Assembly: GCA_011390635.1 (NCBI GenBank)
Contig: JAABSA010000009.1
Location: 1-64,000 of the forward strand
Direction of reading: 5' to 3'
DNA: 64,000 bases
From: Desulfotignum sp.
GTDB taxonomy: Bacteria > Desulfobacterota > Desulfobacteria > Desulfobacterales > Desulfobacteraceae
Below the pieces are notes generated by a model. The model did not search any database. It was given only the letters and a program-made list of their open reading frames with translations, and was not told the DNA's origin. The translations under genes were made by a program, and so were the position numbers. The first letter of the stretch is position 1. Every line of letters begins with the position of its first letter. Below, piece by piece: positions 1 through 15,284 of the stretch.

Positions 1-244
1 TCTGCTGCAGGGTCTGGGAGGGGGCTGTTTGCAGAAAGGATGTATCTTCGTTCTTTTTCCACTCAACCAGGCATCCGGCCAGTTGGTTATATTACAGCAC
101 CCTTTCGGTTTTATCCAAGGAGTCTTTCTGCAAGGCGAGAGCCATATTCCAAACCTTACGGTTACACCCGGAGAATTGAAACAACAACTCTTCAATTTCC
201 GAATTGGTCTTGATCCTGAATTTATATGCCTTGCGAATGATCAT
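1..244 (-). pseudogene. tnpB: IS605-type tnpB, N-terminal part, interrupted by a stop
   Basis: Read on the minus strand from the ATG at 244-242, the frame begins MIIRKAYKFRI and continues with FSGCNRKVWNMAL, which is the N-terminus of IS200/IS605 OrfB (TnpB, the RNA-guided nuclease ancestral to Cas12). A TAA at 94-92 stops it at codon 51. The frame then resumes with YNQLAGCLVEWKK and runs off the left edge of the window, still matching the family. The stop is therefore a nonsense mutation in a once full-length gene. The gene diverges from tnpA at 283, the classic IS605 arrangement. The rest of the gene, its guide RNA and the left end lie outside the window. Confidence 0.75.
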
Positions 245-282
245 GTATGAATTTTATCCTTGGCCGATGGTATAGTCAAGGC

Positions 283-686
283 ATGATAAAAAAAATCCAG
301 ACATCCGAACCGGCAGACATTGTGTGTTCAACATGCACGTTCACCTGGTGTTTGTTCCCAAATACCGGAAAAAAGTTTTTGACCAAGATGCACTCCGGGC
401 TCTGGAACAGATATTTACCCATGTCCTTAACCAGTTCGAGGCTGAGTTGGTTGAATTCAATGGTGAAAGTGATCATGTGCATTTGCTGGTGAATTATCCA
501 CCAAAGGTCACGGTTTCAAAGATGGTAAACAGCCTGAAGGGGGTTTCATCCAGGAAATTACGCCAGCAGTTGCCTGAACTTTCACGAATCTATTGGAAAG
601 GGGTGCTCTGGTCACCTTCCTATTTTGCAAGCTCCTGTGGTGGAGCACCGCTGGATGTAATCAAACAGTATATCGAAGAGCAATAA
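283..686 (+). pseudogene. tnpA: IS200/IS605 TnpA transposase, frame broken near the start
   Basis: This is a Y1 HUH single-strand transposase. The body from 324 reads FNMHVHLVFVPKYRKKVF and contains HVHLLVNYPP, the HUH pair, plus the helix ending DVIKQYIEEQ. The family's N-terminus (KNPDIRTGRHCVF) is encoded at 288-326 in the same frame, but that frame has no ATG. The only suitable ATG, at 283, is out of frame. It is separated by a run of eight A residues at 288-295, and nine would restore MIKKNPDIRTGRH. The gene is either inactivated by one lost A, or expressed through slippage on the A run or from the GTG at 324. Length is near the family norm of about 135 residues. Confidence 0.8.
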
Positions 687-690
687 CGAT

Positions 691-736
691 CGGCCTAGTG
701 GCCGGGCGCCTTATATCCCCGACCTGAAGGAAGGGG
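691..736 (+). repeat. IS605-type right-end hairpins
   Basis: Two short hairpins follow the tnpA stop. One has arms CGGCC and GGCCG around TAGT at 691-704. The other is an imperfect stem CCCC-CCT/AGG-GGGG at 717-736, followed by TTTTACGGCG. IS200/IS605 elements have subterminal imperfect palindromes, not inverted repeats, and TnpA recognises them as single strands. Position and shape fit the element's right end. The exact cleavage site cannot be fixed from one copy. Confidence 0.5.
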
Positions 737-1614
737 TTTTACGGCGCTTTGGATAAAATTTTTCAAGCCATGAATTTTCAGCCTTAGATAATGATCCTTT
801 AATGGTGAAATAATCGGTACTGTCAGAAAATCAGACTAATCGTATGCCCCCGATTTGCGGCCATTTCAGCACCCCGGCAAGCCAAACGTATCGGAAATGC
901 AAAATTTTTTCGGAACATGCTCCTGGTTGAGTCTTTTCCGCAAAAGCGTTCCCAATTCCCGGCATATGTTCCAAACTCCTTTTCGAGAGGGACATTCCCC
1001 TGTTGGTAAATTTTGATGAGTTTCGGTGTCCATAATTCTCTACGGCCAATGAATACTCATGCAGTGGATAATCTTGACTGTTATCGATGGATGGAATTCC
1101 CCAACAAAACATTTTGGCTTTAATTGTAACCCCCCGCTGGACTTTTAATAATAGTCTGGGGTTTAAGATCCGCCGTTGATGGGATTTCGATTTTGATATA
1201 GTCCGTAGGGAGAAATTTGAAATTCCCCTCACAATGCTTCTGTTAGTGAATACTGTTTTAAAATTGGCTTGAGGGATCTATAATATTTGGTATTGGCAGT
1301 CTGTCTATGTGTTGAATGGAATGAATAACTTTGCAAACCATTTTAAATGGTGGTATAAACCTTCTCAATGATGTTTTTAACTATATTTCTAACAGAAATT
1401 GGAGAACAAGTTAAGGTTTTGATATATAGGATTAACGCAGAAAACCTATACGCCATAGCCCTTTCATTTCCTTGTTTTTTTGATAGGATCTGAAAAAAAT
1501 GAGGCACTACTCTTTTTCCAAGAGTTCGCTTGGAAAAAGTGGACTTTTCGGAGCAGTTGATCTGAATAGTTGTTCAAGGTTTCATCAGCAACAAAATATC
1601 GACATTTTTTTTAA
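737..1614. other. Gene-free, AT-rich stretch downstream of the IS
   Basis: No reading frame here has a convincing ribosome binding site or family resemblance. A minus-strand frame of 133 codons at 831-1232 matches nothing I recognise and has no RBS. The region may hold eroded mobile-element sequence. The only clear structure is the hairpin at 1512-1539. The stretch just before 1615 is probably the promoter region of the next gene, but no clear -35/-10 pair stands out. Confidence 0.5.
1512..1539. repeat. Perfect 11-bp hairpin upstream of the pseudo-ATPase/radical SAM gene
   Basis: Arms CTTTTTCCAAG (1512-1522) and CTTGGAAAAAG (1529-1539) pair perfectly around the 6-nt loop AGTTCG. No T-run follows, so it is not a canonical terminator. 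It lies about 75 bp before the start of the gene at 1615 and could be an operator, a leader structure or a mobile-element end. Confidence 0.6.
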
Positions 1615-3708
1615 ATGTATATTTTAGATTTACACTTCAAAAACGCTTGCAGAAACGGTAATGGCAGGCTCAGGTTCCCCAAATATAATGGACAAATAAG
1701 AAAATGGACTATTTTTTCGTCCGAGCCTTCCAAACTTGAACTACTTCGCTTTGTGGCGATAGCCTGTGGAGGGGTGAAGTTTTTACCGAAGCTGCCATTT
1801 CAATTTTTAGAACTATTAGATTTTCCTGAAATTCCGCTTCAATTGGAATTTGTTCTTGCACCCCATCCCGGCCAGGATTACGGTGAAAACCTTCCAGCAT
1901 GCTATGGCAGTGGTATTCAAATAAAATCTGGTCAACATCCCATCGCTTTTTGTAAAAAGATGGAATGTCTTCCTGCAGGTCTTTCCACACGAAAACCGGC
2001 TTTCGGTACGGGTAATTCATCTTATTTTATCCTCGGTTACGGCCATGACATCATACCACATAGGGGAACGGATGATTTTGATTTCCTGGATCCATTTTTC
2101 CGTATCACCCGTTTTCACACCTTGTTCAATAAATACGCCCACGTTACTGATCCTGTAGAATTCCTACATCGACTACGGTTCAAAATAGTACGAGCAGGCC
2201 GGTACCTTCCCACAAAGATACTGAAAATTTTAGACGATTTGTTCCAGGAAAATTTCGATATCGACATTGGTTCATGGTTTTACGATTCATCTGATTTTAA
2301 AAAAAAATGGGATCGGCTCCAGCCTTGGCAACGACGGGCAGTGCTAATTCCCCTGGACGTTGCCAGACACCTTTTGGATGCATTCCCCCAATCCAACAAT
2401 CCGACTGATAAACAGGGGATTATCCTTCTGGACCGGCCGGATCGGATCTGCATACCACGGATTTTTCCTAAATGGATCACTCTTATGGACCGCTTTCTGC
2501 CAAATATGCAGTTTATTGTAACTGTTTCCAAAAGTACGATTTCAAACTTTCCCGTAGAAGCTGACAGAAAACGGCTCGTCCTGCCCACAGGAAATAAAAA
2601 TAATGGAAAAGAAACTCCCAAAAAAATACCGCAACGATCTGTGTTGCTGATTCATTTGGATGGAAGGCTGCCCAATCTGGCGTTGATGAAACTCAGCAAG
2701 TATTTCAAAGAAAAGGGGCGCAACGTGGTCCTGGCCTGGGGAGCCCCAAAAATCAAGGGAGCAGGGGAGGTTTATGCCAGCTGTGTATATGCCATTCCAG
2801 CTTCTGCAAAAAAGGTAAAAATTCTTCGTAAGTATTATGGTAAGTCTCTTGTGATCGGAGGATCAGGCGTGGATTTGAACCTTAGGTTGGATACTGAAAT
2901 TGAAAAATTGCCTCCGGATTATAGTCTTTATCCAGAACTCGATGAGCGTGCAATGGGCTTTATCACCCGTGGATGTCCCAGTAGATGCCCTTTTTGCCTT
3001 GTTCCGGAAAAAGAGGGGAATGTTCACCAGGTCGCCACATTGAACGATTTACTAACCAATGGACAGAACAAATTGATTCTCCTGGATGATAACATTCTAT
3101 CGCATCCAGAATCAGGGAATTTTCTGGAAGAAATGGCATTGCGCGATGTTCAGGTCAATTTCACCCAAACTCTGGATATCCGTTTCCTGAACAAAGAAAA
3201 GATCAGGCTGATCCGCCGAATTAAGTGCAGCAACCTCAAATTCACACGAAGGGTATACCATTTCAGCCTCAACGACACCAGGAACATCGACTTATATAAG
3301 CGTAAATATCCTCTGCTCGGATTTACACGAAGAGATAATGTGGAATTTGTCTGCATGTATGGTTTCAATACCACCCTGGCCGAAGACGTAGAGCGATTTC
3401 GTTTTCTGCGGTCACTGCCGGGAGCCTATGTTTTTGTTCAACGTTATCAACCCATTCCTGGCGGGCCGCCACCCGATCTGGATAACTATTTTAATGGAGA
3501 TGTGGATACCCTCATTGAGGAACTCGTGACCATTGTTTTCACTCAAAACATGAAGAGCATGGAAGTATATTACCGTTGGTTGAGTAGAGAATATGCAAAG
3601 AAGTACGGTAAACTTCATAACGGTCTCGTTGACACGATTTTCAAGTACAATAGTCGGCAACAGAAAGGACGTTATCTTGCAACTCTTGCCGGTACGCGGA
3701 AGGAATAG
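1615..3708 (+). CDS. Pseudo-ATPase (RecF/PtuA-like) fused to a radical SAM domain
   Basis: This 697-residue protein has two parts. Residues 1 to about 320 follow the outline of a RecF/OLD/PtuA-like AAA ATPase: MYILDLHFKN start, WTIFSSEPSKLELLRFVAIA where WT-GxNGxGKT would be, the YFILGYG-DFDFLDPFFR block, IILLDRPD for Walker B, and QFIVTVSKS. The P-loop glycines and lysine and the Walker B glutamate are lost, so ATP hydrolysis is unlikely. From about 340, LIHLDGRLPNLALMKLS begins a degenerate B12-type domain. Then comes the radical SAM core with Cys454, Cys458 and Cys461 (CX3CX2C), which would hold a 4Fe-4S cluster and SAM. Substrate is unknown. The druA-like gene starts 28 bp downstream, so the two are probably co-transcribed. 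The start at 1615 is chosen because MYI is the usual ATPase N-terminus; the RBS is poor. Confidence 0.75.
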   Translation: MYILDLHFKNACRNGNGRLRFPKYNGQIRKWTIFSSEPSKLELLRFVAIACGGVKFLPKLPFQFLELLDFPEIPLQLEFVLAPHPGQDYGENLPACYGSGIQIKSGQHPIAFCKKMECLPAGLSTRKPAFGTGNSSYFILGYGHDIIPHRGTDDFDFLDPFFRITRFHTLFNKYAHVTDPVEFLHRLRFKIVRAGRYLPTKILKILDDLFQENFDIDIGSWFYDSSDFKKKWDRLQPWQRRAVLIPLDVARHLLDAFPQSNNPTDKQGIILLDRPDRICIPRIFPKWITLMDRFLPNMQFIVTVSKSTISNFPVEADRKRLVLPTGNKNNGKETPKKIPQRSVLLIHLDGRLPNLALMKLSKYFKEKGRNVVLAWGAPKIKGAGEVYASCVYAIPASAKKVKILRKYYGKSLVIGGSGVDLNLRLDTEIEKLPPDYSLYPELDERAMGFITRGCPSRCPFCLVPEKEGNVHQVATLNDLLTNGQNKLILLDDNILSHPESGNFLEEMALRDVQVNFTQTLDIRFLNKEKIRLIRRIKCSNLKFTRRVYHFSLNDTRNIDLYKRKYPLLGFTRRDNVEFVCMYGFNTTLAEDVERFRFLRSLPGAYVFVQRYQPIPGGPPPDLDNYFNGDVDTLIEELVTIVFTQNMKSMEVYYRWLSREYAKKYGKLHNGLVDTIFKYNSRQQKGRYLATLAGTRKE

Positions 3709-3736
3709 ACCTTAATTTTTGTAGGTGAGGATATTG

Positions 3737-5053
3737 ATGCAAGAAAATTTACCTGAAATTAGATGCACCAAAAAGGAAACAGAGGAACTCCAACAGATCG
3801 CCTGCAGCAGGACTGCCGTTGTTTGGCAGATCAAACGTGCAAAAATTATCCTGGGGGCATTGGCGGGCCGGACCGTTGATCAGCAGGTTCGCGACGTACG
3901 GGTGCCTCCTCAATCCATCATAAAATGTAGAAAAAAATTTGTTGAGCAGGGTCTAAAATATTTTAATCAGCCGGATAGGAAGCCCACTAATCGAGAGGCT
4001 GCCGTGGAAAAAATGCTTGCATTTCTCGAATGCTCCCCAACCACTGAAAACCGACTTTGGAACAAATTGACGGTACATTATATTGGATTAGATTTTACAG
4101 CCGCAGAGATAAGGAAAATCAGAACAATTATTGAAACCAATCCGCAATATAACCGCAAGGAAATAACACGGGAGGTTTGCCGTATTTTCGGGATATACCA
4201 GACGGATGGGCGACTGAAAACAACTGCAGTCGGCGGAATATTAAGGCGCATGGATATGGACAATATTATCACATTGCCATTCACGCCATTCGTCAGTTAT
4301 AACAAACACTCTCGGTCCTGTAATTTTGAAGTTCCCGAAACGCAGATAGTTTTTAAGCCGGAGGAGTTGAAGCAACTGCAATTCATTCCTGTAGCAAACA
4401 AAAGGGATTCTGACCTATGGAACGAGTTGGTCATGCGCTTCCATTATATAAAAGGCAGCAAACTATTCGGCAGGCAGATGAGATATCTTGTATACGGCGG
4501 GGAGCCGAGGCCGTCAGAAAAGAATCCAAAAGGAAGAAAGAAGAAAAAATCAGCAGCGGCAACCCCGTCAAAATATTCAATGGGTAGTTGGAAACCAAAA
4601 CATCCCAATCCGACGAGAGGAAAGCACCTCCTGGCGGTTCTCGGTTTCGGGGCCAGCTCATGGCGTTTGAGTTCCCGGGACGATTTTATCGGCTGGACAG
4701 AAAAGGAACGAATTGCCAACCTGAATCTGGTAGTAGGCAATGTTCGGTTTTTAATTCTGCCCTGGGTCAGGTCACATTGCCTGGCTTCACGAATCCTTGG
4801 AGGTATTGCTAAAAAACTTCCATTGGACTGGGAGGACCGGTATCACTTTAAGCCCATCCTGCTGGAAACTTTTGTTCAACTGGACCGCTTCACGGGCACC
4901 TGTTACCGTGCCGCTAACTGGCAACAAGTGGGAACAACTAAGGGCTACAGCTTGCGTGGCTACAAGGCGTGTAAAAGTATACCGGAAAAAGCTATTTTCC
5001 TGTACCCTCTTCGTAAAGATTTCCGAAAGATTCTGTGCACGTTACCGAAATGA
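3737..5053 (+). CDS. DruA-like DUF4338 protein with extra N-terminal helix-turn-helix
   Basis: This 438-residue protein has three parts. Residues about 25-75 (RAKIILGALAGRT through KFVEQGLKYFNQ) resemble the IS630-type helix-turn-helix. Residues about 125-185 (ITREVCRIFGI-DGRLK-GILRRMD) match the usual N-terminal domain of DruA proteins. Residues about 215-430 are DUF4338: WNELVMRFHYIKG, LAVLGFGASSWRL, RDDFIGWTEKERIANLNLVVGN, RFLILPWV, and FTGTCYRAANW. DruA is a component of the Druantia anti-phage system, but DUF4338 proteins also occur alone in many copies. No druB-E genes are here; the partner is the upstream radical SAM fusion. The ATG at 3737 has GGTGAGG six bases ahead, preferred over GTG 3725. 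C-terminus looks complete. Confidence 0.75.
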   Translation: MQENLPEIRCTKKETEELQQIACSRTAVVWQIKRAKIILGALAGRTVDQQVRDVRVPPQSIIKCRKKFVEQGLKYFNQPDRKPTNREAAVEKMLAFLECSPTTENRLWNKLTVHYIGLDFTAAEIRKIRTIIETNPQYNRKEITREVCRIFGIYQTDGRLKTTAVGGILRRMDMDNIITLPFTPFVSYNKHSRSCNFEVPETQIVFKPEELKQLQFIPVANKRDSDLWNELVMRFHYIKGSKLFGRQMRYLVYGGEPRPSEKNPKGRKKKKSAAATPSKYSMGSWKPKHPNPTRGKHLLAVLGFGASSWRLSSRDDFIGWTEKERIANLNLVVGNVRFLILPWVRSHCLASRILGGIAKKLPLDWEDRYHFKPILLETFVQLDRFTGTCYRAANWQQVGTTKGYSLRGYKACKSIPEKAIFLYPLRKDFRKILCTLPK

Positions 5054-5068
5054 ATTAAAGGGGATAAG

Positions 5069-5194
5069 TTTGTTATTGAAGAGCAGATATAAAAAATCCA
5101 GCGGATCAAACCAAAATGTTTGAGGCGAAGACTTTTTTCGTGACAGAGTCCGTCTTTTATGCAAATAAAAAACCCCGGACTATCCCTGTTATTG
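5069..5194 (+). repeat. Dispersed intergenic repeat, copy A
   Basis: A long copy of a degenerate element found seven times in the first 18.6 kb. Shared blocks in order are TTTGTTATTGA-GAGCAGATAT, GATCAAACC-A-ATGTTTG, GCGA-GAC, GTCCGT-TTTTATG, and CCCC-GACTATCCCTGTTATTG. It starts 15 bp after the druA-like stop codon. Confidence 0.65.
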
Positions 5195-5302
5195 AGCTGC
5201 TGCCTTGAAATAGGATGAGACGACAGCTGATAAAACGGTATTGCCAATCCGATATTTATGAATTAAGTTGCATGGATTTGAATAACCCATGGATGACCTC
5301 AA

Positions 5303-6463
5303 ATGAACAAAGCCGCCGTTCTTTTTATCCTGTCTGCCGCTGTGGGGGTGGCGATGATGGGACTTGGCATCATCTGGCCTTTGATTCCGGTTTATGCGGT
5401 GGAACTTGGGGCCGGGGGATTCCTGGTCGGACTCATCGTTGCCAGCTTCAACATTTCTAGAGTTCTTTTAAGCCCTTTCAGCGGAGCAATATCGGACAAA
5501 TGGGGTAGAAAACGGTTCATTGCATCCGGACTGTTGATCTACGCGATTCTTTCTGTTTTTTATGTGTTGCCGGAAAATGCGGAGACTCTGATCTTGATCA
5601 GGCTGCTCCACGGCATTGCCTCACTTCTGGTGGTGCCGGTGGCCATGGCTCTGACTGCGGACATTGCACCACCCCATAAACTGGGGCTTTACATGGGAAC
5701 ATTGAACATGGCCATTATGGTCGGTCTCGGTTTCGGCCCGGCCATGGGTGGCATTATCCGGGACACTCTCGGGTTTAACGCCGCTTTTTACATCATGGGT
5801 GGCCTGGCTCTTATCACCTCTCTGATGGTAGCGGTTTTTATCCCTGCGGACAAGACTCATCTCAGCGATATAAAAAGACCCAAACCATATCCTCTCAGAA
5901 AAATAATCGCCCACAGAACGGCCGCCGGCATACTTATAATGCGCTTTTTCGCCGCTTCAGGTCAAGGATCAGTGTACACCTTTCTGCCTATTTTGGCCAT
6001 GAAGATCAATCTGTCCAGTTCACAGGTCGGAATCATTTTGACCATGAATATCTTTTTTATTGCCTTTCTCCAGCGGATAAGTGGCAGACTGGCTGACCGG
6101 ATCAATCCCAAGCACCTAATCATCGCAGGCACCTTTGCCTCTGGCATAACGGTCCTGTTCATGCCCTTTGTTCAGGGATTCATCACAATTCTGACACTCA
6201 ATATCCTGATGGGAATGGCCAACGGTCTTTCTCTGCCCGGCGGACTGGTCATCACCGGTCGGCTGGGGCAGGCCATGGGGATGGCCTCTATTATGAGTCT
6301 CAACGACGCCGCCTGGGGGTTGGGGTTCATCGTCTCTCCCATCCTTTCCGGACTCATCCTCGACTGGATGGGCGTATCCTACGTCTTTATAATCGGCAGC
6401 TTCTTAATCCTTTTCGGCGGCGTTGCCGTGACCGTCTTTTTATGGGATTATGACAACTCGTAA
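5303..6463 (+). CDS. MFS transporter (drug-efflux type)
   Basis: This is a 386-residue, twelve-helix major facilitator superfamily permease of the inner membrane. The family signature between helices 2 and 3 is clear (GAISDKWGRKRF), and a weaker counterpart (SGRLADRINPK) sits in the second half. The arrangement and length fit proton-driven multidrug or metabolite exporters of the DHA1 type; the substrate cannot be inferred. It stands alone on the plus strand, with a repeat copy on either side (ending 5194 and starting 6515). The ATG at 5303 is preceded by a weak GGATG; an ATG at 5290 reads into a stop at once. Confidence 0.85.
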   Translation: MNKAAVLFILSAAVGVAMMGLGIIWPLIPVYAVELGAGGFLVGLIVASFNISRVLLSPFSGAISDKWGRKRFIASGLLIYAILSVFYVLPENAETLILIRLLHGIASLLVVPVAMALTADIAPPHKLGLYMGTLNMAIMVGLGFGPAMGGIIRDTLGFNAAFYIMGGLALITSLMVAVFIPADKTHLSDIKRPKPYPLRKIIAHRTAAGILIMRFFAASGQGSVYTFLPILAMKINLSSSQVGIILTMNIFFIAFLQRISGRLADRINPKHLIIAGTFASGITVLFMPFVQGFITILTLNILMGMANGLSLPGGLVITGRLGQAMGMASIMSLNDAAWGLGFIVSPILSGLILDWMGVSYVFIIGSFLILFGGVAVTVFLWDYDNS

Positions 6464-6514
6464 TGCTGCTTCATGATCGGTTGCATCCTGTCAACTTCTG
6501 GGAAAGACCCCGAT

Positions 6515-6568
6515 AGGGACGTTGGATTTTTTTTGTTAGATGACAACCACAGACTTTCTCTGTAACTC
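6515..6568 (+). repeat. Dispersed intergenic repeat, copy G (degenerate)
   Basis: The most eroded copy. TTTTTTTTGTTAGATGACAACC followed by CAGACTTTCTCTGTAA aligns with the distal half of copies B and E. It lies about 50 bp after the MFS gene stop. Membership in the family is less certain than for copies A, B, E and F. Confidence 0.4.
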
Positions 6569-6787
6569 ATTTCCGGGAGAATTTGTATGTTTAAAAAAAC
6601 ATGAAACAGCAGACATCACACTGCTTTTTATAATTACTGCACGTACCCGAGGCACGCAGCTGGCGTTTTATGAATTTTTATCAATAATGTAGCCACTGCT
6701 ACAGACAAGTGAATGACATTTATATATGATGCAGTTCAAAGCAGTCTCAAGGACCATCATACCAATAAATTAAAAGGAGATGCAATC

Positions 6788-7303
6788 ATGAAAGTATTGG
6801 TCACTTATTTCAGCCAGAGCGGCAACACGGAAAAAATTGCCAGAGCTATCTGCGAAGAAGCAGCCAAAGCCGGTGATGCGAATTTAAAGAAACTTGAAGA
6901 AATCACTCCTGATATGGCCGCAGAATATGATTGTATTTTCATGGGGTCGCCTCTGCACGCCGGAAGCCTGGCAGCCCCGGTAAAGGAATTTTTAGGCACT
7001 CTAAAGGCAACTTCCGGTCAGCAGATGGCAGGTTTTATTACCCACATGGCTCCTGCTTATCCGGAACAGGACATGGATGCCTTTGCAGAACCCATGAAAA
7101 CCGCATGCAAAGAAAAAGGAATCGAATACAGGGGCTGTTTTGACTGCCAGGGATTTTTGGAAGAAGCGATGCATGCACCTGTGCAGAAAAAACTTGCCCT
7201 TGATGATGAAAAGTGGGCAGCTATGGTCAAGCAGATGACCGGCCGTCCCAACCAGGAAGATGTGGACAATGCCAAAGCGTTCGTAAGGAGACTCTTTGCT
7301 TAA
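6788..7303 (+). CDS. Flavodoxin-family FMN protein
   Basis: A 171-residue flavodoxin-fold protein. The phosphate-binding loop is SQSGNTEKIA (residues about 9-18), after the beta-1 strand MKVLVTYF; the GSPLHAGS segment lies at the isoalloxazine site. It probably carries electrons or reduces a small substrate with bound FMN. The ATG at 6788 has a strong AAGGAG seven bases ahead, preferred over an upstream in-frame start at 6713. The Crp/Fnr regulator begins 82 bp downstream in the same direction, so the two may be linked functionally. Confidence 0.8.
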   Translation: MKVLVTYFSQSGNTEKIARAICEEAAKAGDANLKKLEEITPDMAAEYDCIFMGSPLHAGSLAAPVKEFLGTLKATSGQQMAGFITHMAPAYPEQDMDAFAEPMKTACKEKGIEYRGCFDCQGFLEEAMHAPVQKKLALDDEKWAAMVKQMTGRPNQEDVDNAKAFVRRLFA

Positions 7304-7385
7304 GCCGTAAAATCATGGATCAGTTCCTCTGTAAATGATATGTTGATGAACATAAAAGAATCATGTCTCGCATGAAAGGATTCCC

Positions 7386-8090
7386 ATGACTTGTTTATGC
7401 AAACAAATCGCAGGAAATGACATAGAGCTGTCTACGACTTGTATCGGCAATCTTTGGATATTTCAGGGTCTTGCCCCTGAAAATGTTCAGGCCCTTGCAA
7501 AAGAAGCATTGCGGAAAAAAATGAAAAAAGGGGATACCGTATTCATGCAGGGAGATACCGCCAACGAGGTGTTCCTCATAAAGGGGGGGCGCATTAAACT
7601 GACCAAGGTGCTGGAAGACGGAACCGAACTCATGCTGGACCTGAGAAAAGCCGGTGATTTTGTTGGTGAAAACATGTTCTCTGAAGAGGGCGAGTATCCG
7701 GTGAGTGCGGTCTGCATGGAAGATACATTGACATGCGGGTTCACCCGGAGCCAGTTTGAAGAACTGGTGCTTAACAATCCCACGGTCGGCCTCCAGGTGA
7801 TCAAAACCCTCAGTGAAAGGATTTCCTGGCTCACCACCCGGGTGGGTGATCTGGCAGTGACAAATATCGAAGCGCGTCTTTACAAGGTGCTTTGCAATGT
7901 TGCCAAAGAGCATGGAGAGAAAAGGCCCCAGGGGGTGATGATTCAATTTCCGCTGACTCACGAGGATCTCAGCTTTTTGATCGGTACACACAGGGTGACG
8001 GTTACACGGGCCATGAAAGCGCTCAAGGAAACGGGAAAAATTATTCTTGAAAACAGGCGGCTTATCCTGCCATCTTTGGCAGCCTCTTAA
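7386..8090 (+). CDS. Crp/Fnr-family transcriptional regulator
   Basis: A 234-residue regulator: cyclic-nucleotide-like sensor barrel (residues about 25-145; GDTVFMQGDTANEVFLIKGG and GDFVGENM), dimer helix, then a winged helix with LTHEDLSFLIGTHRVTVTRAMKAL as the recognition motif. Cysteines at positions 3, 5 and 19 precede the barrel. Fnr uses CX2CX5C plus a later cysteine for its oxygen-labile cluster; this CXC-X13-C pattern differs, so redox sensing is possible but unproven. The likely targets are the flavodoxin and redox genes around it. RBS AAAGGA precedes the ATG. Confidence 0.85.
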   Translation: MTCLCKQIAGNDIELSTTCIGNLWIFQGLAPENVQALAKEALRKKMKKGDTVFMQGDTANEVFLIKGGRIKLTKVLEDGTELMLDLRKAGDFVGENMFSEEGEYPVSAVCMEDTLTCGFTRSQFEELVLNNPTVGLQVIKTLSERISWLTTRVGDLAVTNIEARLYKVLCNVAKEHGEKRPQGVMIQFPLTHEDLSFLIGTHRVTVTRAMKALKETGKIILENRRLILPSLAAS

Positions 8091-8107
8091 TATAGGAGAT
8101 TTCAACT

Positions 8108-8344
8108 ATGACATATTTTTTTCCGACAACAGTTCCTGAAACCGCAATAGGGAGGCTTCAGAAAATTCCTATAAAATTCATCACAGCAAGATCCAGGAAC
8201 TAAAAGATCAGGGGTGTTCTGATGAAGAAATTTTCGAAGCCATCTGTCACGTCACTTTTCAATTTCATGGACCGGATGGCTGATGCAACCGGAGCTCCAG
8301 TTGAAGGTATGCAGGAGATGATTAGACAGGCGCAGAATCAATAA
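8108..8344 (+). pseudogene. Broken AhpD/carboxymuconolactone-decarboxylase-like gene
   Basis: A good RBS (TAGGAG) and ATG at 8108 open a frame that stops after 31 codons. In other frames the same stretch reads YKIHHSKIQELKDQGCSDEE and then TSLFNFMDRMADATGAPVEG, ending at TAA 8342-8344. Those pieces resemble the C-terminal half of AhpD-like (CMD family) proteins. Only about 79 codons remain, well below the usual 110-190, and at least two frameshifts are needed. It looks like a gene with an internal deletion and drift. It follows the Crp/Fnr gene by 17 bp, suggesting an old operon. Confidence 0.6.
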
Positions 8345-8450
8345 GTATCTGTCCGAATGAAGACCTGCTCCGCTTCTACCTGAAATAATAATTCGGGAGC
8401 CGGGACAGGCCACTTTTTTAAATCCTCAGACAATGTTAAGGAGAATCTTA

Positions 8451-9137
8451 ATGTCACCGCAAAATAAGATTGACGGGATAAGAGCCTGTGTGTTTGATGC
8501 CTACGGCACCCTTTTTGACGTTCATTCAGCTGTTGGGAAACACCGTGATCGGCTGGGAGAAAAGGCCGAACAGGTATCTGTGCTCTGGCGGACGAAACAG
8601 CTGGAGTACACTTGGTTGAGAAGCCTGATGAAACAACATGCCGATTTCTGGAAGGTCACCTTGGATGCTCTTGATTTTTCTTTTGACATGCACGGGATAG
8701 CCGACACAGATCTCAGGGATGATTTGATGAATGCATACCTGGGCCTGGACGCTTATCCGGAAGTGCCCGAAGTACTGTCTGTTTTAAAAGACAGGGGATT
8801 TAGACTGGCCATTCTATCCAATGGCACCCCGGCAATGCTTGATGCTGCGATAAAAAATTCAGGGATCGAAAACCTGATTGATGCTAATCTTTCCATTGAA
8901 GATGTTGGAATTTTCAAGCCGGACCCTAAAGTCTATCAACTGGCTTTGGATAAACTGTCTGTTCAGCCCGGAGAAATCATATTTCAATCCTCCAATGCCT
9001 GGGATGCGGCAGGGGCTTCAGCATTTGGATTTAATGTCGCCTGGGTTAACAGATTCGGTCAAAGCAAGGAACGGCTGCCCGGCAACCCGAATTTTGAAAT
9101 AAAAACCCTGATGGGGCTACCGGATCTGATCAATTGA
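8451..9137 (+). CDS. Haloacid dehalogenase, type II (HAD superfamily)
   Basis: A 228-residue HAD hydrolase. Motif I is FDAYGTLFD (nucleophile Asp), motif II ILSNGTP, and motif III/IV the KPDPKVYQLAL and SSNAWDAAGASAFGFNVAWVNR segments. The SSNAWD and VNR signatures are characteristic of (S)-2-haloacid dehalogenase, which hydrolyses 2-haloalkanoates to 2-hydroxyacids through an aspartyl ester. The natural substrate here is unknown. The ATG at 8451 has AAGGAG seven bases upstream; the in-frame ATG at 8433 lacks an RBS. Confidence 0.85.
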   Translation: MSPQNKIDGIRACVFDAYGTLFDVHSAVGKHRDRLGEKAEQVSVLWRTKQLEYTWLRSLMKQHADFWKVTLDALDFSFDMHGIADTDLRDDLMNAYLGLDAYPEVPEVLSVLKDRGFRLAILSNGTPAMLDAAIKNSGIENLIDANLSIEDVGIFKPDPKVYQLALDKLSVQPGEIIFQSSNAWDAAGASAFGFNVAWVNRFGQSKERLPGNPNFEIKTLMGLPDLIN

Positions 9138-9574
9138 CACAGCTTGTCAATGGCCTTGGCAGCGGTGAGGGTGGTATGCCGACTTAATCTATCAAAGTGG
9201 ACGTCGGCTTCTTTTGTTATTGATGAGCAGATATGTAGACTGGCAGATCAAACCGAGATGTTTGGAGCGAGGACAACTAGCGGGACAAGGTCCGTTTTAT
9301 GGGCGGATGATAATCCAAGATTATCACTGTTATTCATGTTTGGCATACAGCCGAAAAAATTTTTGAAAATATCATCAAACTCACGAACAAATCAATTCAT
9401 GAGTGTTGTTGTTTTTAATTTCGAAATTTTATTGCGACTGCTAAGAACCAATAAAGTTTCGCGTTTGTCCTATTCTTATGTTAAATAAATTGATTTGATA
9501 TTTTTAGTCAGTTATATTTTTGAATTTAGGGATCTTCTCTAAAACAATAGAATCTTAGCAAAGGAAAGGTAACC
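9138..9574. other. Gene-free interval containing repeat copy B
   Basis: A 114-codon frame at 9144-9488 runs straight through the repeat and has no RBS or family match, so I do not call it. The remainder is AT-rich and probably carries the promoter of the gene at 9575. Confidence 0.6.
9213..9334 (+). repeat. Dispersed intergenic repeat, copy B
   Basis: The best-preserved long copy. Blocks: TTTGTTATTGATGAGCAG, CTGGCAGATCAAACC, GAGATGTTTG, GCGAGGACAACTAG, GGGACAAGGTCCGTTTTATG, GCGGATGATAA and a final CACTGTTATT. GGAC and GTCC can form a short hairpin around AAG. It lies 75 bp after the haloacid dehalogenase stop. Confidence 0.7.
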
Positions 9575-10291
9575 ATGAAGATTTTAGCGGTATCAGGAAG
9601 TCCACGTATAGAAAAACGTTCATCGACACTTAAGCTTGTCAAAATGGTAGCAGAAAACACTGGGTGTGAGTATGATCTTGTTTCGCTCGCAGGTAAAAAA
9701 ATACATGGTTGCATGGGTTGCATGGGTTGTGCCGATGATAATATATGTAAGTTGAAAGATGATTTAACCCCCTTGAGGGACAAAATTGCAGAAGCGGATG
9801 CCTACATTCTTGGAGGCTGCAATTTCTTTTCCACTCTCAATGCAAGTATGCATTCTTTTTTGGAACGATGGTATCAATTTCGTCACAGAGAACAGAATGA
9901 ACTTTGGGGTAAACCCGCCGTAACGGTTTCAGTGGGAGGGGTGCAAACAGAACCGGTTGCTAAAATTCTTGAGCAGTTTTGTATGTATAATTTTATTCAG
10001 GTAGTAGATAGAGTTGAAGGCTTTGGCGCTGCCGGTTGTTTCTATTGTGGGTATGGGGAGACATGTAAAGTTGGAGCTATACATGCAGTACATGGAGATG
10101 GATTTAAAATTACGGAAGATAATACCCCTTGTGTGAGCAAGGATGCTGCATGCATGGAAAAAGCGTGTCAAACAGGAAAGAATCTCGGGAAAATTTTAAA
10201 AAATGGTCATGATAGAAGTAAGGCAGCCCAAGAGGTAAGAGAATCGCTGATGGCCAGAAGAGGATTTAAAAAAGAAGATAAAGCCCTTTAA
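9575..10291 (+). CDS. Iron-sulfur flavoprotein (Isf-like NADPH-dependent FMN reductase)
   Basis: A 238-residue flavodoxin-fold oxidoreductase. SGSPRIEKRSST is the FMN phosphate loop. Immediately after, at residues about 45-57, CMGCMGCADDNIC gives CX2CX2CX5C, the compact motif of archaeal and anaerobe Isf proteins that binds one 4Fe-4S cluster beside FMN. Such proteins act in electron transfer and oxygen or peroxide detoxification in strict anaerobes. More cysteines occur near the C-terminus (CFYCGYGETC), which could bind another metal. RBS AAAGGAAAGG precedes the ATG. A second Isf-like gene follows at 10495. Confidence 0.8.
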   Translation: MKILAVSGSPRIEKRSSTLKLVKMVAENTGCEYDLVSLAGKKIHGCMGCMGCADDNICKLKDDLTPLRDKIAEADAYILGGCNFFSTLNASMHSFLERWYQFRHREQNELWGKPAVTVSVGGVQTEPVAKILEQFCMYNFIQVVDRVEGFGAAGCFYCGYGETCKVGAIHAVHGDGFKITEDNTPCVSKDAACMEKACQTGKNLGKILKNGHDRSKAAQEVRESLMARRGFKKEDKAL

Positions 10292-10494
10292 AATAGAAGA
10301 GACAACCCCAATCAGAAAATTCGATTTATAAGAAATAGATGTGGACTACTATCAGTTGAAGATTGATTATCTGGTCAAAGATTCTCCAAGGCTATCCTTA
10401 GTAAAAGCTGTGAAAGGCTTGCATAGTGCAAAAAATTGATTAATTTAGAGAAACTATATTTTCCATTATAAAAATTAAATAAAGGAGACTAAAT

Positions 10495-11130
10495 TTGAAA
10501 GTTGTTGGATTTAACGGTAGCGCCAGAAAAAAAGGGAATACAGCATGTTCCATGAACACGGTTTTCACAGAATTGGAAAAAGCCGGTATTGAAACTGAAA
10601 TGATCCTGGTCGGTAAAGAAAAGATCCAGGGATGTATTGCTTGTCATGGCTGTGTAAAAAATCAAAATGAAGCCTGTACCATCGAAGACGATCCGGTAAA
10701 TGAATGGATTCAGAAAATTAAAGAGGCGGACGGTCTTCTGCTCGGCTCTCCAGTTCACTTTTCTGGTGTGGCCGGGACAATGAAATCCTTTCTTGACAGA
10801 GCCTTTTTCGTCTCTTCGGTAAACGGCGGCCTGTTCAGACATAAAGTCGGTGCCGCTGTTGCTGCTGTCAGGCGATCAGGAGGAATATCCACGATTGAGA
10901 CGCTTAATCATTATATCAACTACTCCGAAATGATTATGCCCTCTTCGAATTATTGGAACGTGGCCCATGGGTTTAACCCTGGAGAAATGGAGCAGGATGC
11001 TGAGGGTAAACAGATCATGGAAGTTTTAGGCAAAAATATGGCATGGATTATGAAGGTTATCGGATACGCGAAAGCGGAATTTCCGCCGCCAGAAACAGTT
11101 GCCAAAACCAAGACGAATTTCATCAGATAA
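10495..11130 (+). CDS. Iron-sulfur flavoprotein / FMN reductase family protein
   Basis: A 211-residue NADPH-dependent FMN reductase-fold protein. It begins MKVVGFNGSARKKGNT, the phosphate loop. Residues about 47-60 carry CIACHGCVKNQNEAC, CX2CX2CX6C, consistent with an Isf-type 4Fe-4S site. GSPVHFSGVAGTMKSFLDR is the usual FMN and dimer segment. The start is TTG at 10495, supported by an AAAGGAGA eight bases upstream. Its neighbour at 9575 is of the same class but not a close duplicate. Likely an anaerobic electron carrier or stress reductase. Confidence 0.8.
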   Translation: MKVVGFNGSARKKGNTACSMNTVFTELEKAGIETEMILVGKEKIQGCIACHGCVKNQNEACTIEDDPVNEWIQKIKEADGLLLGSPVHFSGVAGTMKSFLDRAFFVSSVNGGLFRHKVGAAVAAVRRSGGISTIETLNHYINYSEMIMPSSNYWNVAHGFNPGEMEQDAEGKQIMEVLGKNMAWIMKVIGYAKAEFPPPETVAKTKTNFIR

Positions 11131-11184
11131 TTTTGAAACTATGGCCTGCTGATCCTTCAATATTGAAAAAATGGAGAATATTAT

Positions 11185-11538
11185 ATGAGCAAACCCGTCC
11201 TTTATATGCTCAACACGTGGAATGATGCGCCTGATCAAGGACCCTTTTACTGCCCGGACTGCGGTATTGTAGAAGGATTTTTTATTTACAACCCGAAAAT
11301 TAGGGAACAGGTGAATATCATCCATGTTGATTTCCAACGGCCCCGGCCTGAAATCATTGAACAGCTGGGAGAAGAGAACCAAGGTTCTCCTGTGCTTATA
11401 CTGGCGGATGATTCCGTTTCCTTTGACGATATTAAAAAAAGCATGACCACCGGCAAGTTATTTATTGACGATGCCCTATCCATCTGTAACTTTCTGGGCC
11501 AGACATATAATGGGATACTGCCTCATCCGCAAGATTAA
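11185..11538 (+). CDS. DUF3088-type thioredoxin-like protein
   Basis: A small 117-residue protein. It has a FYCPDC (CX2C) pair at residues about 23-26, near the place of a thioredoxin active site, in a sequence that otherwise fits DUF3088 (DAPDQGPFYCPDCGIVEG, then SPVLILADD). Members resemble the glutathione-S-transferase/thioredoxin fold. A role in thiol redox is inferred only. It begins 54 bp after the Isf-like gene and probably shares its transcript. Confidence 0.6.
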   Translation: MSKPVLYMLNTWNDAPDQGPFYCPDCGIVEGFFIYNPKIREQVNIIHVDFQRPRPEIIEQLGEENQGSPVLILADDSVSFDDIKKSMTTGKLFIDDALSICNFLGQTYNGILPHPQD

Positions 11539-11694
11539 ATATCAGGAAAAAGGGAACGGATTTTTTTGATCCTCAAACTATCCCCTCCGACGGGCACTTT
11601 TTTTGGAATCGTCATTGTCCCGGTGCATGCTAAGATCCGTCGACAGGAGCTGCAACAACCGTCTCTTTATTATTGATGCAAAAAGGAGAAAACC

Positions 11695-12123
11695 ATGGAA
11701 AAAAAAGGCTTAACAGCACCATGTGGATTGGATTGTTTCAATTGTGACCTGTATGTAGAGAATCTAACAGACAAGTTGTCTGGATTGATACAGGAAAAAC
11801 TCGGCATTCCTGAACATGAAATTGCATGCCAGGGATGTAGGCAACAAGATGGGAAGCACTTTCATCTTGGTCCTGAAGGGTGCTCCACCCTTGATTGTGT
11901 TAAAAGGAAGGATGTTGATTTTTGCTTTAACTGTGATGATTTTCCATGTCTGTATCTTGCTCCTACTGCTGATGGTGCAGCCAGGTACCCGCATAACATG
12001 AAAATGTACAACCTTTGCCGAATAAAACAATTTGGGTTTGAAAAGTGGTTTAAAGAATCGGATATGATCCGTAAAAAGTATTTCACAGGGAAATTTGTTG
12101 TAGGCAGAGGACAAGAGGATTAG
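11695..12123 (+). CDS. DUF3795 cysteine-rich protein
   Basis: A 142-residue protein with many paired cysteines: APCGLDCFNCDLY at the N-terminus, ACQGCRQQDG, CSTLDCVKRKDVDFCFNCDDFPC. This CGxxCxxC plus CxxCxxFPC pattern is the mark of DUF3795, a zinc- or iron-sulfur-binding family of anaerobes with no established function. RBS AAAAAGGAGAAAACC precedes the ATG. It closes the plus-strand redox gene run that starts at 9575. Confidence 0.75.
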   Translation: MEKKGLTAPCGLDCFNCDLYVENLTDKLSGLIQEKLGIPEHEIACQGCRQQDGKHFHLGPEGCSTLDCVKRKDVDFCFNCDDFPCLYLAPTADGAARYPHNMKMYNLCRIKQFGFEKWFKESDMIRKKYFTGKFVVGRGQED

Positions 12124-12442
12124 AAGGCCCGTTTATCTTACCATCATTCAAAATGGTGTCAGTTTTTTTTGTTGGTGATCTGATGTATGAACTCTGGCAG
12201 GTCAGATCAACGTATCTGGGAGAAGGATTACTTTTAGGATAGAGTCCACTTTCTATGCGGATTAAACCCCAAAAAAACCATCCAGTGGCTCTATCAGATT
12301 ATTTCCAGCCGAAGTCTTATTTTCATTGGCATACCGTTCAATCCGTTGAATCATCAGAAAAGACTGTTCAACATTGGATAAAGATAATAATAAAACTGCA
12401 CCCAATTTGCCCCTATTGTTTGACATTTTGGGATTTTAAAAT
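12124..12442. other. Intergenic region with weak terminator and repeat copy C
   Basis: ACCAT (12140-12144) and ATGGT (12153-12157) form a short stem followed by eight T at 12163-12170, a weak terminator candidate for the DUF3795 gene. Repeat copy C follows. The rest is the downstream side of the minus-strand mttB-like gene; no gene is supported. Confidence 0.4.
12167..12272 (+). repeat. Dispersed intergenic repeat, copy C (degenerate)
   Basis: Recognisable blocks are TTTTGTTGGTGAT, CTCTGGCAGGTCAGATCAA, GTATCTGGGAGAAGGATTAC, AGAGTCCACTTTCTATGCGG and ATTAAACCCC, in the order and spacing of copies A and B. It has lost the terminal ATCCCTGTTATTG block. Confidence 0.5.
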
Positions 12443-13888
12443 CTACATATCAGCTTTGTTTGAGTTTATGACCATATCGTTTAACTGTGGGTAATAGTGT
12501 TTCTTTTTAGCAGCTTGCTTTATCATATCCTCCCAATGGTGAAACGAATCCACATTTTTCAATGTGTGATCAGCAGACTTTGGGTTACCCTTTTCGGCAA
12601 TTTCACGGATTCCTGAAAGGGCTTGATCGTCGCTCGGAAAATATAATGGCATCATGCCTTTATCTTTTGGGATTGCATCGAATACTTCCCTGGAACGTCT
12701 TTCACTCTCACAATCTTTTAATAATTTTTCAAGGCAGAAATAGTTAAGACTGCCTAAGGCGCCAATAGCGTGCCGTACAATATGCACCCCATATTTGCGT
12801 AATGTATTTCGGCTTAACTCTGACTCAATTATTGCCTGTGAATTCACATCGGATAAACTGGTACTCCCTCCGGTCTGAGCAGAAGGAAAATGTGTAATCC
12901 AGGTGTTGACCCGCGCCATGGCAGCATTGATAAATGTTTGATGGGGGGAACTGTAAGAAAGATTGCCGCCTGCCCCGGTAACACTTGGTATGCCGCAATG
13001 GATACAAGAAATACCCGGATTAACGGTTTGCGCCAAGACCATCATGAAAATAACCTGGGCATGATTCTGCGTCAGCAAAGCCTCAGGGCTTCCAGGGCCG
13101 GAGACGCCAGCAATCGTCTGGTCAATCAGTAAGAGGTTATTTCCAGTTCGTGCACTGCGTAAAAAAGGATCAACCATGTTGTTCATAGATGCCAAAGAGG
13201 CAATGAGGCTCGTACCGTCGAGCCAGTCCCCTTTGTCCTTGAAAAAAGCCACCTCGTCATCGCTCATCATGTTTGTTGTGATCATCTTGAGGCCTTGAAA
13301 ATTTTTCACCATCAGGTGAGCAACTTCAAAAAGAGAAATGCTCTTGTCACAGGCTACCGGCAAGCTAAACATCCCTACAACATCCTGGTGTTTACCCACC
13401 TCGAAGGCTATTTCTTCGTACTCTTTGCGGCTGGCCGGACGTAATTCATCATCACCGTTCCTTTTTAAAAATGGAGGCGTTGCACCGATACCAAATGTAT
13501 TCATTCCCGGATCTAAAGGCATTTCACGTGGTACTTGCGCAAGACAGTGGTCAATATAGTCTGGTTTCAAAGGTATAAACAGTGCTGTTTCGTTATCGAA
13601 ATCCACAGCATCCGCTTCCATAAGAAGATCCATAAGGATTTGATTCTCAGATATATTTACACCAATATCAGTAAGTACCTTTTTTGCGTTTTCGTCGATA
13701 CGCTGATAAATAGCCTTCTCTGAAATCAAATCGTTAATATCTTCCATCCGACATCGTGTTTTTTCAAGAATCGTTTCGTCGGTGGCATGCTGTAAGATAT
13801 CTTCATATATGGAATGAGCCTTCTCAAATTGAGCTTCGTTTTCCAAACGTATTCCCTCATTAAAGGTCTCTTCTATCTTTTTATTCAT
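12443..13888 (-). CDS. MttB-family (trimethylamine/betaine-type) methyltransferase without pyrrolysine
   Basis: A 481-residue member of the MttB superfamily, corrinoid-dependent methyltransferases that demethylate quaternary or tertiary amines. The central and C-terminal sections (FGIGATPPFLKRN, TIAGVSGPGSPEALLTQNHAQ, CIHCGIPSVTGAGGNLSYSSP, TGGSTSLSDVNSQAIIES) fit the TIM-barrel family. There is no in-frame TAG, so it is of the non-pyrrolysine (MtgB-like) group, whose known substrates include glycine betaine and related compounds. Residues 1-60 form an added helical, TPR-like N-terminus. Start at 13888 (GAGGG ahead) is preferred over 13924. No corrinoid protein or reductive activator is in the window. 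It diverges from the homocysteine methyltransferase at 14223. Confidence 0.7.
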   Translation of the reverse strand: MNKKIEETFNEGIRLENEAQFEKAHSIYEDILQHATDETILEKTRCRMEDINDLISEKAIYQRIDENAKKVLTDIGVNISENQILMDLLMEADAVDFDNETALFIPLKPDYIDHCLAQVPREMPLDPGMNTFGIGATPPFLKRNGDDELRPASRKEYEEIAFEVGKHQDVVGMFSLPVACDKSISLFEVAHLMVKNFQGLKMITTNMMSDDEVAFFKDKGDWLDGTSLIASLASMNNMVDPFLRSARTGNNLLLIDQTIAGVSGPGSPEALLTQNHAQVIFMMVLAQTVNPGISCIHCGIPSVTGAGGNLSYSSPHQTFINAAMARVNTWITHFPSAQTGGSTSLSDVNSQAIIESELSRNTLRKYGVHIVRHAIGALGSLNYFCLEKLLKDCESERRSREVFDAIPKDKGMMPLYFPSDDQALSGIREIAEKGNPKSADHTLKNVDSFHHWEDMIKQAAKKKHYYPQLNDMVINSNKADM

Positions 13889-14222
13889 TGCAGCCCTCAC
13901 TATTATATATTTAAGCATTGCCATTTTTTTTAACCGTTCAAGTAGATGAACCCATTGAAATGTTCACCTAATCGGTTCGTGATAACTAATTTGACCAGAG
14001 ATGGCAATGCTTATTTTCCTGCAACCGAAGCAAAGGAACTCCGTTTAAGCTTACCGAACCATAGAGGTATATGCTCTGCAGCCACAAATTTGAATATGCC
14101 AGGCAACAAATCCCTTAATACGACAGGCATCATATGCAAATTTGCCTGATCAAACTTTTTTGCTTTTGATAGAAAAAATGCTTTTTACTTGACTGGTCCT
14201 TTAATGTGCAACAAGATTAATT
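13889..14222. other. Divergent promoter region between methyltransferase genes
   Basis: About 330 bp separate the starts of the mttB-like gene (minus) and the homocysteine S-methyltransferase gene (plus). A 67-codon frame at 13946-14149 has no RBS or family. The region should carry both promoters; no strong consensus boxes or palindromes were seen. Confidence 0.5.
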
Positions 14223-15199: not shown

Positions 15200-15284
15200 G
15201 TGATGGCAGTTGGAATCATATCTGTACATCTGTGCCAGCATTGCAATCGCCACATGACGCCCGTTTTATTGATCAAGTATTACG

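What the first reader, a model, noticed from the sequence alone, without database searches (positions are those of the whole stretch)
1615..5053. Two-gene unit: pseudo-ATPase/radical-SAM fusion with a DruA-like partner
The first gene joins an OLD/PtuA-like ATPase scaffold, with both Walker motifs eroded, to a radical SAM domain that keeps its CX3CX2C cluster. The second, 28 bp later, carries DUF4338, the defining domain of DruA in Druantia. Neither Druantia's DruE helicase nor DruB-D is present, and PtuA's HNH partner is absent. ATPase-type and DUF4338 domains are both linked to anti-phage defence, and the locus lies in an accessory zone beside an IS. I infer a candidate undescribed defence or mobile module in which the ATPase fold serves as a scaffold for SAM chemistry.
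Basis: partly seen in the sequence, partly recalled or inferred. Interest (0 to 1): 0.82.

Follow-up and report, generated by a model that had tools for sequence, protein, structure and literature searches.

The report
Dead-ATPase radical-SAM gene with Mom-like partner
A patchily spread, two-gene bacterial unit pairs a dead defence-type ATPase fused to a radical-SAM enzyme with a protein that resembles the enzyme phage Mu uses to chemically mark its DNA, and it may be an undescribed nucleic-acid modification system.

Summary
Gene A (1615-3708, 697 aa) is a real fusion: residues 1-320 fold like PtuA of Septu/retrons (Z 20.7), residues 340-660 like MiaB/MgmA-type radical-SAM enzymes (Z about 15). 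In 17 of 17 full-length family members (window included) Walker A, signature, Walker B-Glu and switch-His motifs are missing while CX3CX2C is invariant. The radical-SAM half belongs to phage family phrog_9298 (1.4e-49). Gene B (GTG 3725 or ATG 3737 to 5053) is a helix-turn-helix plus DUF4338. New here: DUF4338 looks related to Mom, the GNAT-fold DNA-modifying enzyme of phage Mu. Mom is B's best PDB fold match; 14 of 20 places hit by Pfam's Mom profile are DUF4338 places; Mom's H58, Y59, R111, S124, Y159 and N163 align with positions kept in 29-30 of 30 DUF4338 proteins. B follows A, whole, frameshifted or as a remnant, in 11 of 22 assessable loci and is absent in 11. Both genes show dN/dS near 0.3 and are patchy (2 of 13 congeneric genomes). 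Best reading: a mobile or dispensable nucleic-acid-modification unit on a dead PtuA scaffold. Anti-phage function is possible but unshown. It is neither Druantia nor Septu.

The parts
1615..3708 (+). gene A: pseudo-PtuA ATPase / radical-SAM fusion, 697 aa
   Evidence: ORF; 17 full-length family members aligned end to end, window included; dN/dS 0.29 against L002
1615..2574 (+). A residues 1-320: PtuA-type ABC ATPase fold without Walker A, signature, Walker B Glu or switch His
   Evidence: structure match to 8eea_D Z 20.7; motif table 17 of 17; profile match to PtuA 2.4e-8
2632..3594 (+). A residues 340-660: radical-SAM half
   Evidence: MgmA/MiaB/RimO/TsrM Z 14-15; phrog_9298 1.4e-49
2974..2997 (+). 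CX3CX2C cluster motif, residues 454-461
   Evidence: 17 of 17
3725..5053 (+). gene B: HTH plus DUF4338 (Mom-like GNAT), 442 aa from GTG 3725 or 438 aa from ATG 3737
   Evidence: PF14236 8e-35; 8 proteins next to A aligned; dN/dS 0.32
3725..4039 (+). B residues 1-105: helix-turn-helix region resembling the IS630/HTH_29 type
   Evidence: NF033545 0.0012, HTH_29 0.021, both below cut-off; helical in the model
4355..5035 (+). B residues 211-437: GNAT-like core, best match phage Mu Mom; H240, Y241, R341, S355, Y394, N398
   Evidence: 8bv8_A Z 10.3 on a model of modest confidence; residue correspondence
5069..5193 (+). intergenic repeat at the 3' end of the unit; homology to the L002 copy stops here

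Best explanation
A mobile or dispensable two-gene unit for chemical modification of nucleic acid, most likely DNA bases. B binds DNA through its N-terminal helix-turn-helix and modifies a base with its Mom-like acyltransferase domain. A uses a catalytically dead PtuA-type domain as an ATP-independent scaffold or nucleic-acid clamp that presents a radical-SAM domain, which acts on the same target (installing, or further processing, the modification). The mark would protect the element or its host from restriction, or serve as the self-mark of a defence. Shown by computation: the PtuA and radical-SAM folds of A, the missing ATPase motifs, the intact cluster motif, the alignment of B's family to Mom residues, linkage, and selection. 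Inferred: that B has Mom-type activity, that both act on nucleic acid, that they act together, the order of the chemistry, and the benefit.
For: A residues 1-320 match PtuA above all else, Z 20.7; the first 21 rows are chains of Septu or retron complexes. ATPase motifs lost but fold kept in 17 of 17. The radical-SAM half matches MiaB/RimO/MgmA-type modifiers, tied at Z 14-15, and belongs to phrog_9298; partial-length relatives lie in 14 phage and 9 plasmid records, in one phage among RecT, helicase and DNA-methyltransferase genes. B's best PDB match is Mom, Z 10.3 against 9.1 or less for the other rows. The Pfam Mom profile rang in 20 places; 14 coincide with DUF4338 places, 4 of them over the curated cut-off. 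Mom H58, Y59, R111, S124, Y159 and N163 align with DUF4338 positions kept in 29-30 of 30; S124A is the inactive mutant in the PDB title. B, intact, frameshifted or remnant, follows A in 11 of 22 loci. A and B distances correlate, r 0.77, the best of 720 permutations, 6 taxa. dN/dS about 0.3 for both. The B-type N-terminal extension is found in 1 of 48 fetched DUF4338 loci not next to A, and that one is a decayed copy. Precedent: a GNAT coupled with an ABC ATPase predicted to acylate a DNA base (PMC7824862, passage read).
Against: B and its 7 relatives draw no Mom hit in Pfam (limit E = 5, though HMMER's filters drop most weak hits). hhalign of shallow DUF4338 and Mom profiles gave only 1.9% and 7.9% probability, and a DUF4338 profile found none of 7 Mom proteins. 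The joint alignment puts both families in one MAFFT run and has no shuffled control. The GNAT part of B's model is of low confidence, 10-residue blocks of pLDDT 34-80. The Foldseek viral search listed no protein named Mom among the 50 rows shown. Mom's D149 falls on Q or E in B's family. A occurs without B in 11 of 22 loci, so A must work alone there or with something else. The MiaB, TsrM and AprD4 rows are tied, so the radical-SAM substrate is not told by fold. No DxHxxG cobalamin motif in 17 of 17.
Confidence: 0.42

Rival explanations
1. A Septu-like anti-phage system in which the PtuA scaffold has swapped its HNH nuclease partner for a radical-SAM effector, possibly acting on tRNA. PtuA systems cleave tRNA-Tyr and the radical-SAM half resembles the tRNA modifier MiaB. 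B would be the regulator or self-marking enzyme.
For: PtuA is the best fold match of residues 1-320. Septu and retron-Eco7 PtuAB cleave tRNA-Tyr (PMC13096335, passages). A PtuA-like ATPase occurs with other effectors in ptuXYZ (PMC11980606, passages). MiaB is among the best radical-SAM fold matches, and its two sequences are the only non-PtuA hits of the A profile against PDB up to E 0.01. BREX genes lie about 2 kb from A in L085 and a type I methyltransferase about 4 kb away in L019.
Against: In a canonical Septu the Walker A/B residues are essential (PMC13096335); here those motifs are gone in 17 of 17. No HNH family was found in the 10 flanking ORFs of seven loci scanned with Pfam; other neighbours were seen only through lists capped at 25 families. 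The Pfam families shown most often there are response regulators, histidine kinases and transporters; no matched control.
Confidence: 0.25
2. A selfish or transposon-derived module: B is a domesticated transposon-borne DUF4338 gene and A a mobile-element passenger, kept because they protect or help move the element rather than the host.
For: DUF4338 genes lie in multicopy elements with IS66-type transposase (G303 three copies with a 22-bp inverted match at the ends, G416 two copies) and are fused to IS4/Tn5-, IS701- and ISAs1-type transposases; these cases were picked, not drawn at random. B's N-terminus weakly resembles the IS630 helix-turn-helix. The unit sits beside a local repeat and in different flanks in two congeners. 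Decayed copies of A or B: L008, L009, L015, L018, L087.
Against: No terminal inverted repeats were found for the A+B unit itself, and neither A nor B matches a transposase family over cut-off. Only one match to A in its genome. Radical-SAM chemistry is not explained.
Confidence: 0.22
3. A small-molecule or peptide-modifying enzyme pair (natural-product type), with the dead ATPase as a structural domain.
For: TsrM, CysS and AprD4 (named from the PDB titles; their natural-product roles are recalled) tie with MiaB in the fold comparison. In L013 and L014 A has no B and appears to be followed by a dihydrofolate reductase gene.
Against: Neighbours differ from locus to locus. The closest profile family of the radical-SAM half is a phage family. 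A precursor peptide or biosynthetic cluster was not searched for systematically.
Confidence: 0.08

Closest known systems
Septu PtuA / retron Ec78 (Eco7) PtuA
   Same: fold of residues 1-320, Z 20.7, rmsd 3.5, 281 aligned; profile match over residues 232-307
   Different: no Walker A, signature, Walker B Glu or switch His in 17 of 17; the alignment ends at PtuA residue 364 of a 456-residue chain (8eea_D) and a radical-SAM domain follows in A; no HNH partner adjacent in the window
Druantia DruA (DUF4338, PF14236)
   Same: B carries PF14236, 8e-35
   Different: PADLOC DruA match is marginal, 0.00024, residues 301-334; B has an N-terminal HTH extension; no DruE beside it (the one MZB/PF09369 ORF found in the genome is on contig C21, 1045 aa)
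Phage Mu Mom (PF25680)
   Same: best PDB fold match of B; aligned H58, Y59, R111, S124, Y159, N163; the Mom profile also hits DUF4338 proteins
   Different: B's own sequence gives no Mom hit; D149 falls on Q/E in B's family; added HTH; a radical-SAM partner
Phage radical-SAM family phrog_9298
   Same: A residues 343-613, 1.4e-49
   Different: the five phage and plasmid proteins looked at are standalone, 300-343 aa; the fusion to a PtuA-type domain was seen only in A and its relatives, as far as examined
GNAT + ABC-ATPase DNA-modification system predicted by Iyer et al. 2013 (ref. 136 of PMC7824862)
   Different: no radical SAM in that passage; the 2013 paper itself is not held, so family identity was not tested

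Membership tests
Septu | PtuA with working ATPase motifs | tested here: not met
   0 of 17 have GxxxxGK[ST] in the first 90 residues; no DE Walker B in the table
Septu | PtuA fold | tested here: met
   Z 20.7 to 8eea_D
Septu | HNH nuclease PtuB beside PtuA | tested here: not met
   in the window A's neighbours are an IS200-type transposase, an ORF without a family, and B, then an MFS transporter; other loci only partly tested
Druantia | DruE helicase in the locus | tested here: not met
   PF09369, given for DruE in PMC7251935 (passage), is found once in the genome, on C21; no ORF over 700 aa in the window's first 20 kb. A DruE without that domain elsewhere would be missed
Druantia | DUF4338 protein | tested here: met
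   PF14236 8e-35
Mom family (PF25680) | Pfam gathering score | tested here: not met
   B and its 7 relatives: no Mom hit; 4 other DUF4338 places pass it
Mom family (PF25680) | fold and active-site residues of Mom | tested here: inconclusive
   best fold match Z 10.3 but on a low-confidence model; residues aligned except D149
radical SAM superfamily | CX3CX2C and fold | tested here: met
   17 of 17; Z about 15 to solved members
radical SAM superfamily, cobalamin-dependent class | DxHxxG cobalamin motif | tested here: not met
   0 of 17 within residues 336-420 of each protein
prokaryotic viperin (pVip) | match to the pVip profile | tested here: inconclusive
   A's PADLOC rows up to E 1 do not include pVip

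The most novel reading that the evidence does not exclude
A new kind of nucleic-acid hypermodification system in which a Mom-like acyltransferase (B) and a radical-SAM enzyme borne on a dead Septu scaffold (A) jointly build a modified base. By the same homology, DruA of Druantia would be a Mom-type base-modifying enzyme.
Probability: 0.22. Interest if true: 0.87.

Novelty: new variant of a known kind. Interest (0 to 1): 0.62.

Why it matters
A family of dead PtuA-type ATPases with a conserved enzyme attached would show that the Septu scaffold can be reused without ATP hydrolysis to present a different chemistry. The link between DUF4338 and Mom would give DruA, listed as of unknown function in the one paper table seen here, a concrete and testable activity, and would fit the finding of the domain on transposons, much as Mom is carried by phage Mu. 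The unit is small enough to test directly in a laboratory strain.

Tried and rejected
Terminal inverted repeats: a search between 500-bp flanks of nine A+B units (only 72 bp held on the right of L016) gave short matches without a shared pattern; a 13-of-14 inverted match around 1151 and 5170 in the window is 9 bp long in L002 and was not seen in the other seven. Rfam: no family up to E 1 in window 1-20000. Viral contigs: 52 pattern hits from two peptide patterns, none a relative of A. Full-length A in phages or plasmids: 0 records cover 80% of the query; B in phages: no match; B in plasmids: 2 records. PDB sequence search with the B profile: one hit at E 0.22, taken as chance. Papers: PtuA + radical SAM + Septu 0 papers; DUF4338 3 papers. 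Searches were looked at as listings; no title or abstract start shown there links DUF4338 to Mom or PtuA to radical SAM. That speaks only of these searches of an open-licence library. The mad2 hit next to A in L005 was rejected as defence evidence because Pfam calls the gene PCMT. The cassette-array idea for the local repeats was left open: no RYYYAAC/GTTRRRY cores were seen by eye. Reports of gaps between A and B: one search used A stop positions entered by hand; against two of eight were off (L006 by 2 bp, L016 by 6 bp); the range in the full report is the corrected one.
Full report
Observation. The window is contig C98, bases 1-64000, of a 4.09-Mb, 98-contig genome. B can start at GTG 3725 or at ATG 3737; the latter has a GGTGAGG stretch before it and gives the 28-bp gap reported.

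Gene A. By sequence alone the N-terminal half gives marginal PtuA matches (PADLOC 1.2e-7; PDB 0.0031) and the C-terminal half a sub-threshold Radical_SAM match (0.0097). A scan of genome contigs gave 20 related loci. Seventeen full-length proteins, window included, align end to end with 60% mean column identity; L015 was left out because of an internal stop at residue 23. A profile of the 17 hits PtuA chains of the PDB at 2.4e-8 and MiaB at 0.0014. The AlphaFold model (pLDDT 84, pTM 0.53) matches PtuA over residues 1-320 (8eea_D Z 20.7, rmsd 3.5, 281 aligned; the first 21 rows are chains of Septu or retron complexes) and MgmA, MiaB, RimO, AprD4 and TsrM over about 340-680 (Z 14-15, tied). In the motif table 0 of 17 have Walker A (by pattern, first 90 residues). 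By reading the table, none has a DE Walker B, and the signature stretch and the switch histidine are replaced. CX3CX2C is present in 17 of 17. Three further cysteines, 279, 538 and 580, are kept in 16 of 17; whether 538 and 580, in the radical-SAM half, have a role is open. [quoted passage not shown] phrog_9298, a phage radical-SAM family, matches residues 343-613 at 1.4e-49. Partial-length relatives of the radical-SAM half at 23-36% identity lie in 14 phage and 9 plasmid records.

Gene B. PF14236 (DruA/DUF4338) at 8e-35 with weak N-terminal matches to IS630-type helix-turn-helix. Eight proteins next to A align. One paper calls DUF4338 a GNAT domain (PMC10853773, passage read). B's model is of modest confidence (pLDDT 66.7; 10-residue blocks of 34-80 in the GNAT part), yet its best match among the 999 PDB chains aligned is phage Mu Mom (Z 10.3, rmsd 3.6, 154 aligned, 18% identity); the next row has Z 9.1 (the tool warns that best values of 7-8 are common). 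Independently, the Pfam Mom profile run over 297 genomes of the phylum rang in 20 places; 14 of these overlap DUF4338 places found with the B profile, 4 of them over Pfam's own cut-off. In a joint alignment of 30 DUF4338 proteins (8 of B's family, 22 others) with 7 Mom-family proteins, Mom H58, Y59, R111, S124, Y159 and N163 fall on positions kept in 30, 29, 30, 30, 30 and 30 of 30; S124A is the inactive mutant named in the PDB title. D149 falls on D/E/Q (15/9/6). Against this: hhalign of these shallow sets was weak (1.9% and 7.9%), a DUF4338 profile found none of the 7 Mom proteins, and a Mom profile found 1 of 30 DUF4338 proteins, at 2.1e-5. B's family does not reach Mom in Pfam, a Foldseek search of viral models showed no protein named Mom in its 50 rows, and no shuffled control was run on the joint alignment. 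I take the kinship of DUF4338 with Mom as likely, and B's activity as inferred. The Mom family is described as transferring an acyl group to N6 of adenine (PMC7824862, passage read).

Linkage. Assessable means enough sequence after A. L003, L086 and L087 are set aside for contig ends; L025 and L083 repeat L002 and L018 and are not counted. That leaves 22: the window, L002, L004-L021, L084 and L085. B follows A, intact or frameshifted, in 9 (window, L002, L005, L006, L008, L011, L012, L015, L016) and as a short remnant in 2 (L009; L018, reversed-sequence control empty). It is absent in 11 (L004, L007, L010, L013, L014, L017, L019, L020, L021, L084, L085). L013, L014 and L017 are close relatives, so these are not all independent. 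With the start codons I chose, A and B range from an overlap of about 53 bp to a gap of 64 bp. On the A tree the presence of B needs at least 4 changes; that tree was run before L018's remnant was found, so L018 counted as lacking B, L020 and L021 were not in it, and 10 of its 22 inner branches are well supported. A and B identities correlate (r 0.77; only the true order of 720 reaches it; 6 taxa, L002 left out as a near copy and L015 lacking an A row in the alignment). B's N-terminal extension appears in 1 of 48 fetched DUF4338 loci away from A, a decayed copy in NaphS2 (a few of the 48 are the same place fetched twice, and the upstream sequence held is short). In 16 A-bearing genomes searched with the B profile, no gene matching the profile from start to end was listed.

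Selection, patchiness and mobility. Against the 90% identical L002 copy, dN/dS is 0.29 for A (N-half 0.41, C-half 0.19) and 0.32 for B. Full-length A is in 2 of 13 congeneric and 2 of 86 family genomes, own genome included; 3 more of the 86 match only in the radical-SAM half. A match at E 1e-60 or better is in 6 of 395 genomes of the phylum, own included. The A tree places records titled as different phyla near each other, but many of its inner branches are unresolved and most rows are metagenome bins. The 91.5% identity between window and L002 covers 1050-5189 only, after which L002 continues with what is window 11157: the unit lies in different flanks in two congeners. No inverted ends were found. 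DUF4338 proteins as such were in 46 of 395 genomes. Five cases were looked at closely, chosen for being multicopy, long or annotated as transposase: two lie in repeated elements with an IS66-type transposase (G303: 2.48 kb, three copies, 22-bp inverted match at the ends, transposase match below the model's cut-off; G416: 2.39 kb, two copies, over it) and three are fused to IS4/Tn5-, IS701- or ISAs1-type transposases. A sixth, in a Thiodictyon plasmid, is a separate gene near IS and integrase genes.

Neighbourhood. Of 134 neighbour ORFs in 20 loci, 129 were scanned; only the 25 most frequent of 152 PADLOC and of 139 Pfam families were shown. Traced defence genes: BrxA, BrxC and PglX starting about 2 kb from A in L085 and a type I methyltransferase about 4 kb away in L019; a GajB-like helicase in L016 and a candidate-defence profile (PDC-S60) in L009 are weaker. 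AbiE-type and other type I restriction hits exist in the set, but I did not trace them to loci. The Pfam families shown most often are response regulators, histidine kinases, MFS transporters and other ordinary genes. No matched control was run, so enrichment is not claimed.

Reading. The missing ATPase motifs speak against a canonical Septu mechanism, in which Walker residues are essential (PMC13096335, passages). The absence of a DruE candidate beside B speaks against Druantia. A GNAT coupled to an ABC ATPase has a published predicted parallel (PMC7824862, passage). I therefore favour a nucleic-acid-modification unit, with a tRNA-directed Septu offshoot and a selfish transposon-derived module as the main rivals. 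None of these functions has been tested.

Noticed in passing
window 5069-5193, about 6500-6566, 9213-9334, 15130-15197, 17496-17559, 18480-18547: A same-strand family of intergenic repeats of about 62-125 bp ending near AGACTATCCCTGTT separates unrelated genes. In the genome 4 of 6 matches with at most one mismatch are in this contig; a congener has a similar repeat in the neighbouring region. It looks like a cassette array without canonical attC cores.
   Followed up: partly
L088-L092 (genomes G303, G416), L093, L094, L045: DUF4338 (DruA) genes ride as passengers in multicopy elements with IS66-type transposases and are fused to IS4/Tn5-, IS701- and ISAs1-type transposases.
   Followed up: partly
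DUF4338 loci: Pfam's Mom profile (PF25680) recognises DUF4338 proteins, in 4 places over its cut-off: the two Pfam families look related.
   Followed up: yes
L013, L017: Both contigs are titled Akkermansia muciniphila, but the genomes they lie in are 7.3 and 5.8 Mb, and L013's A gene is nearly the same as that of a Pedosphaera bin, L014; the names look doubtful.
   Followed up: no
window 1058-1163: A stretch left of the unit recurs at 91% near the end of contig C61 and partly, at 78%, in C7; a dispersed repeat of unknown kind.
   Followed up: partly
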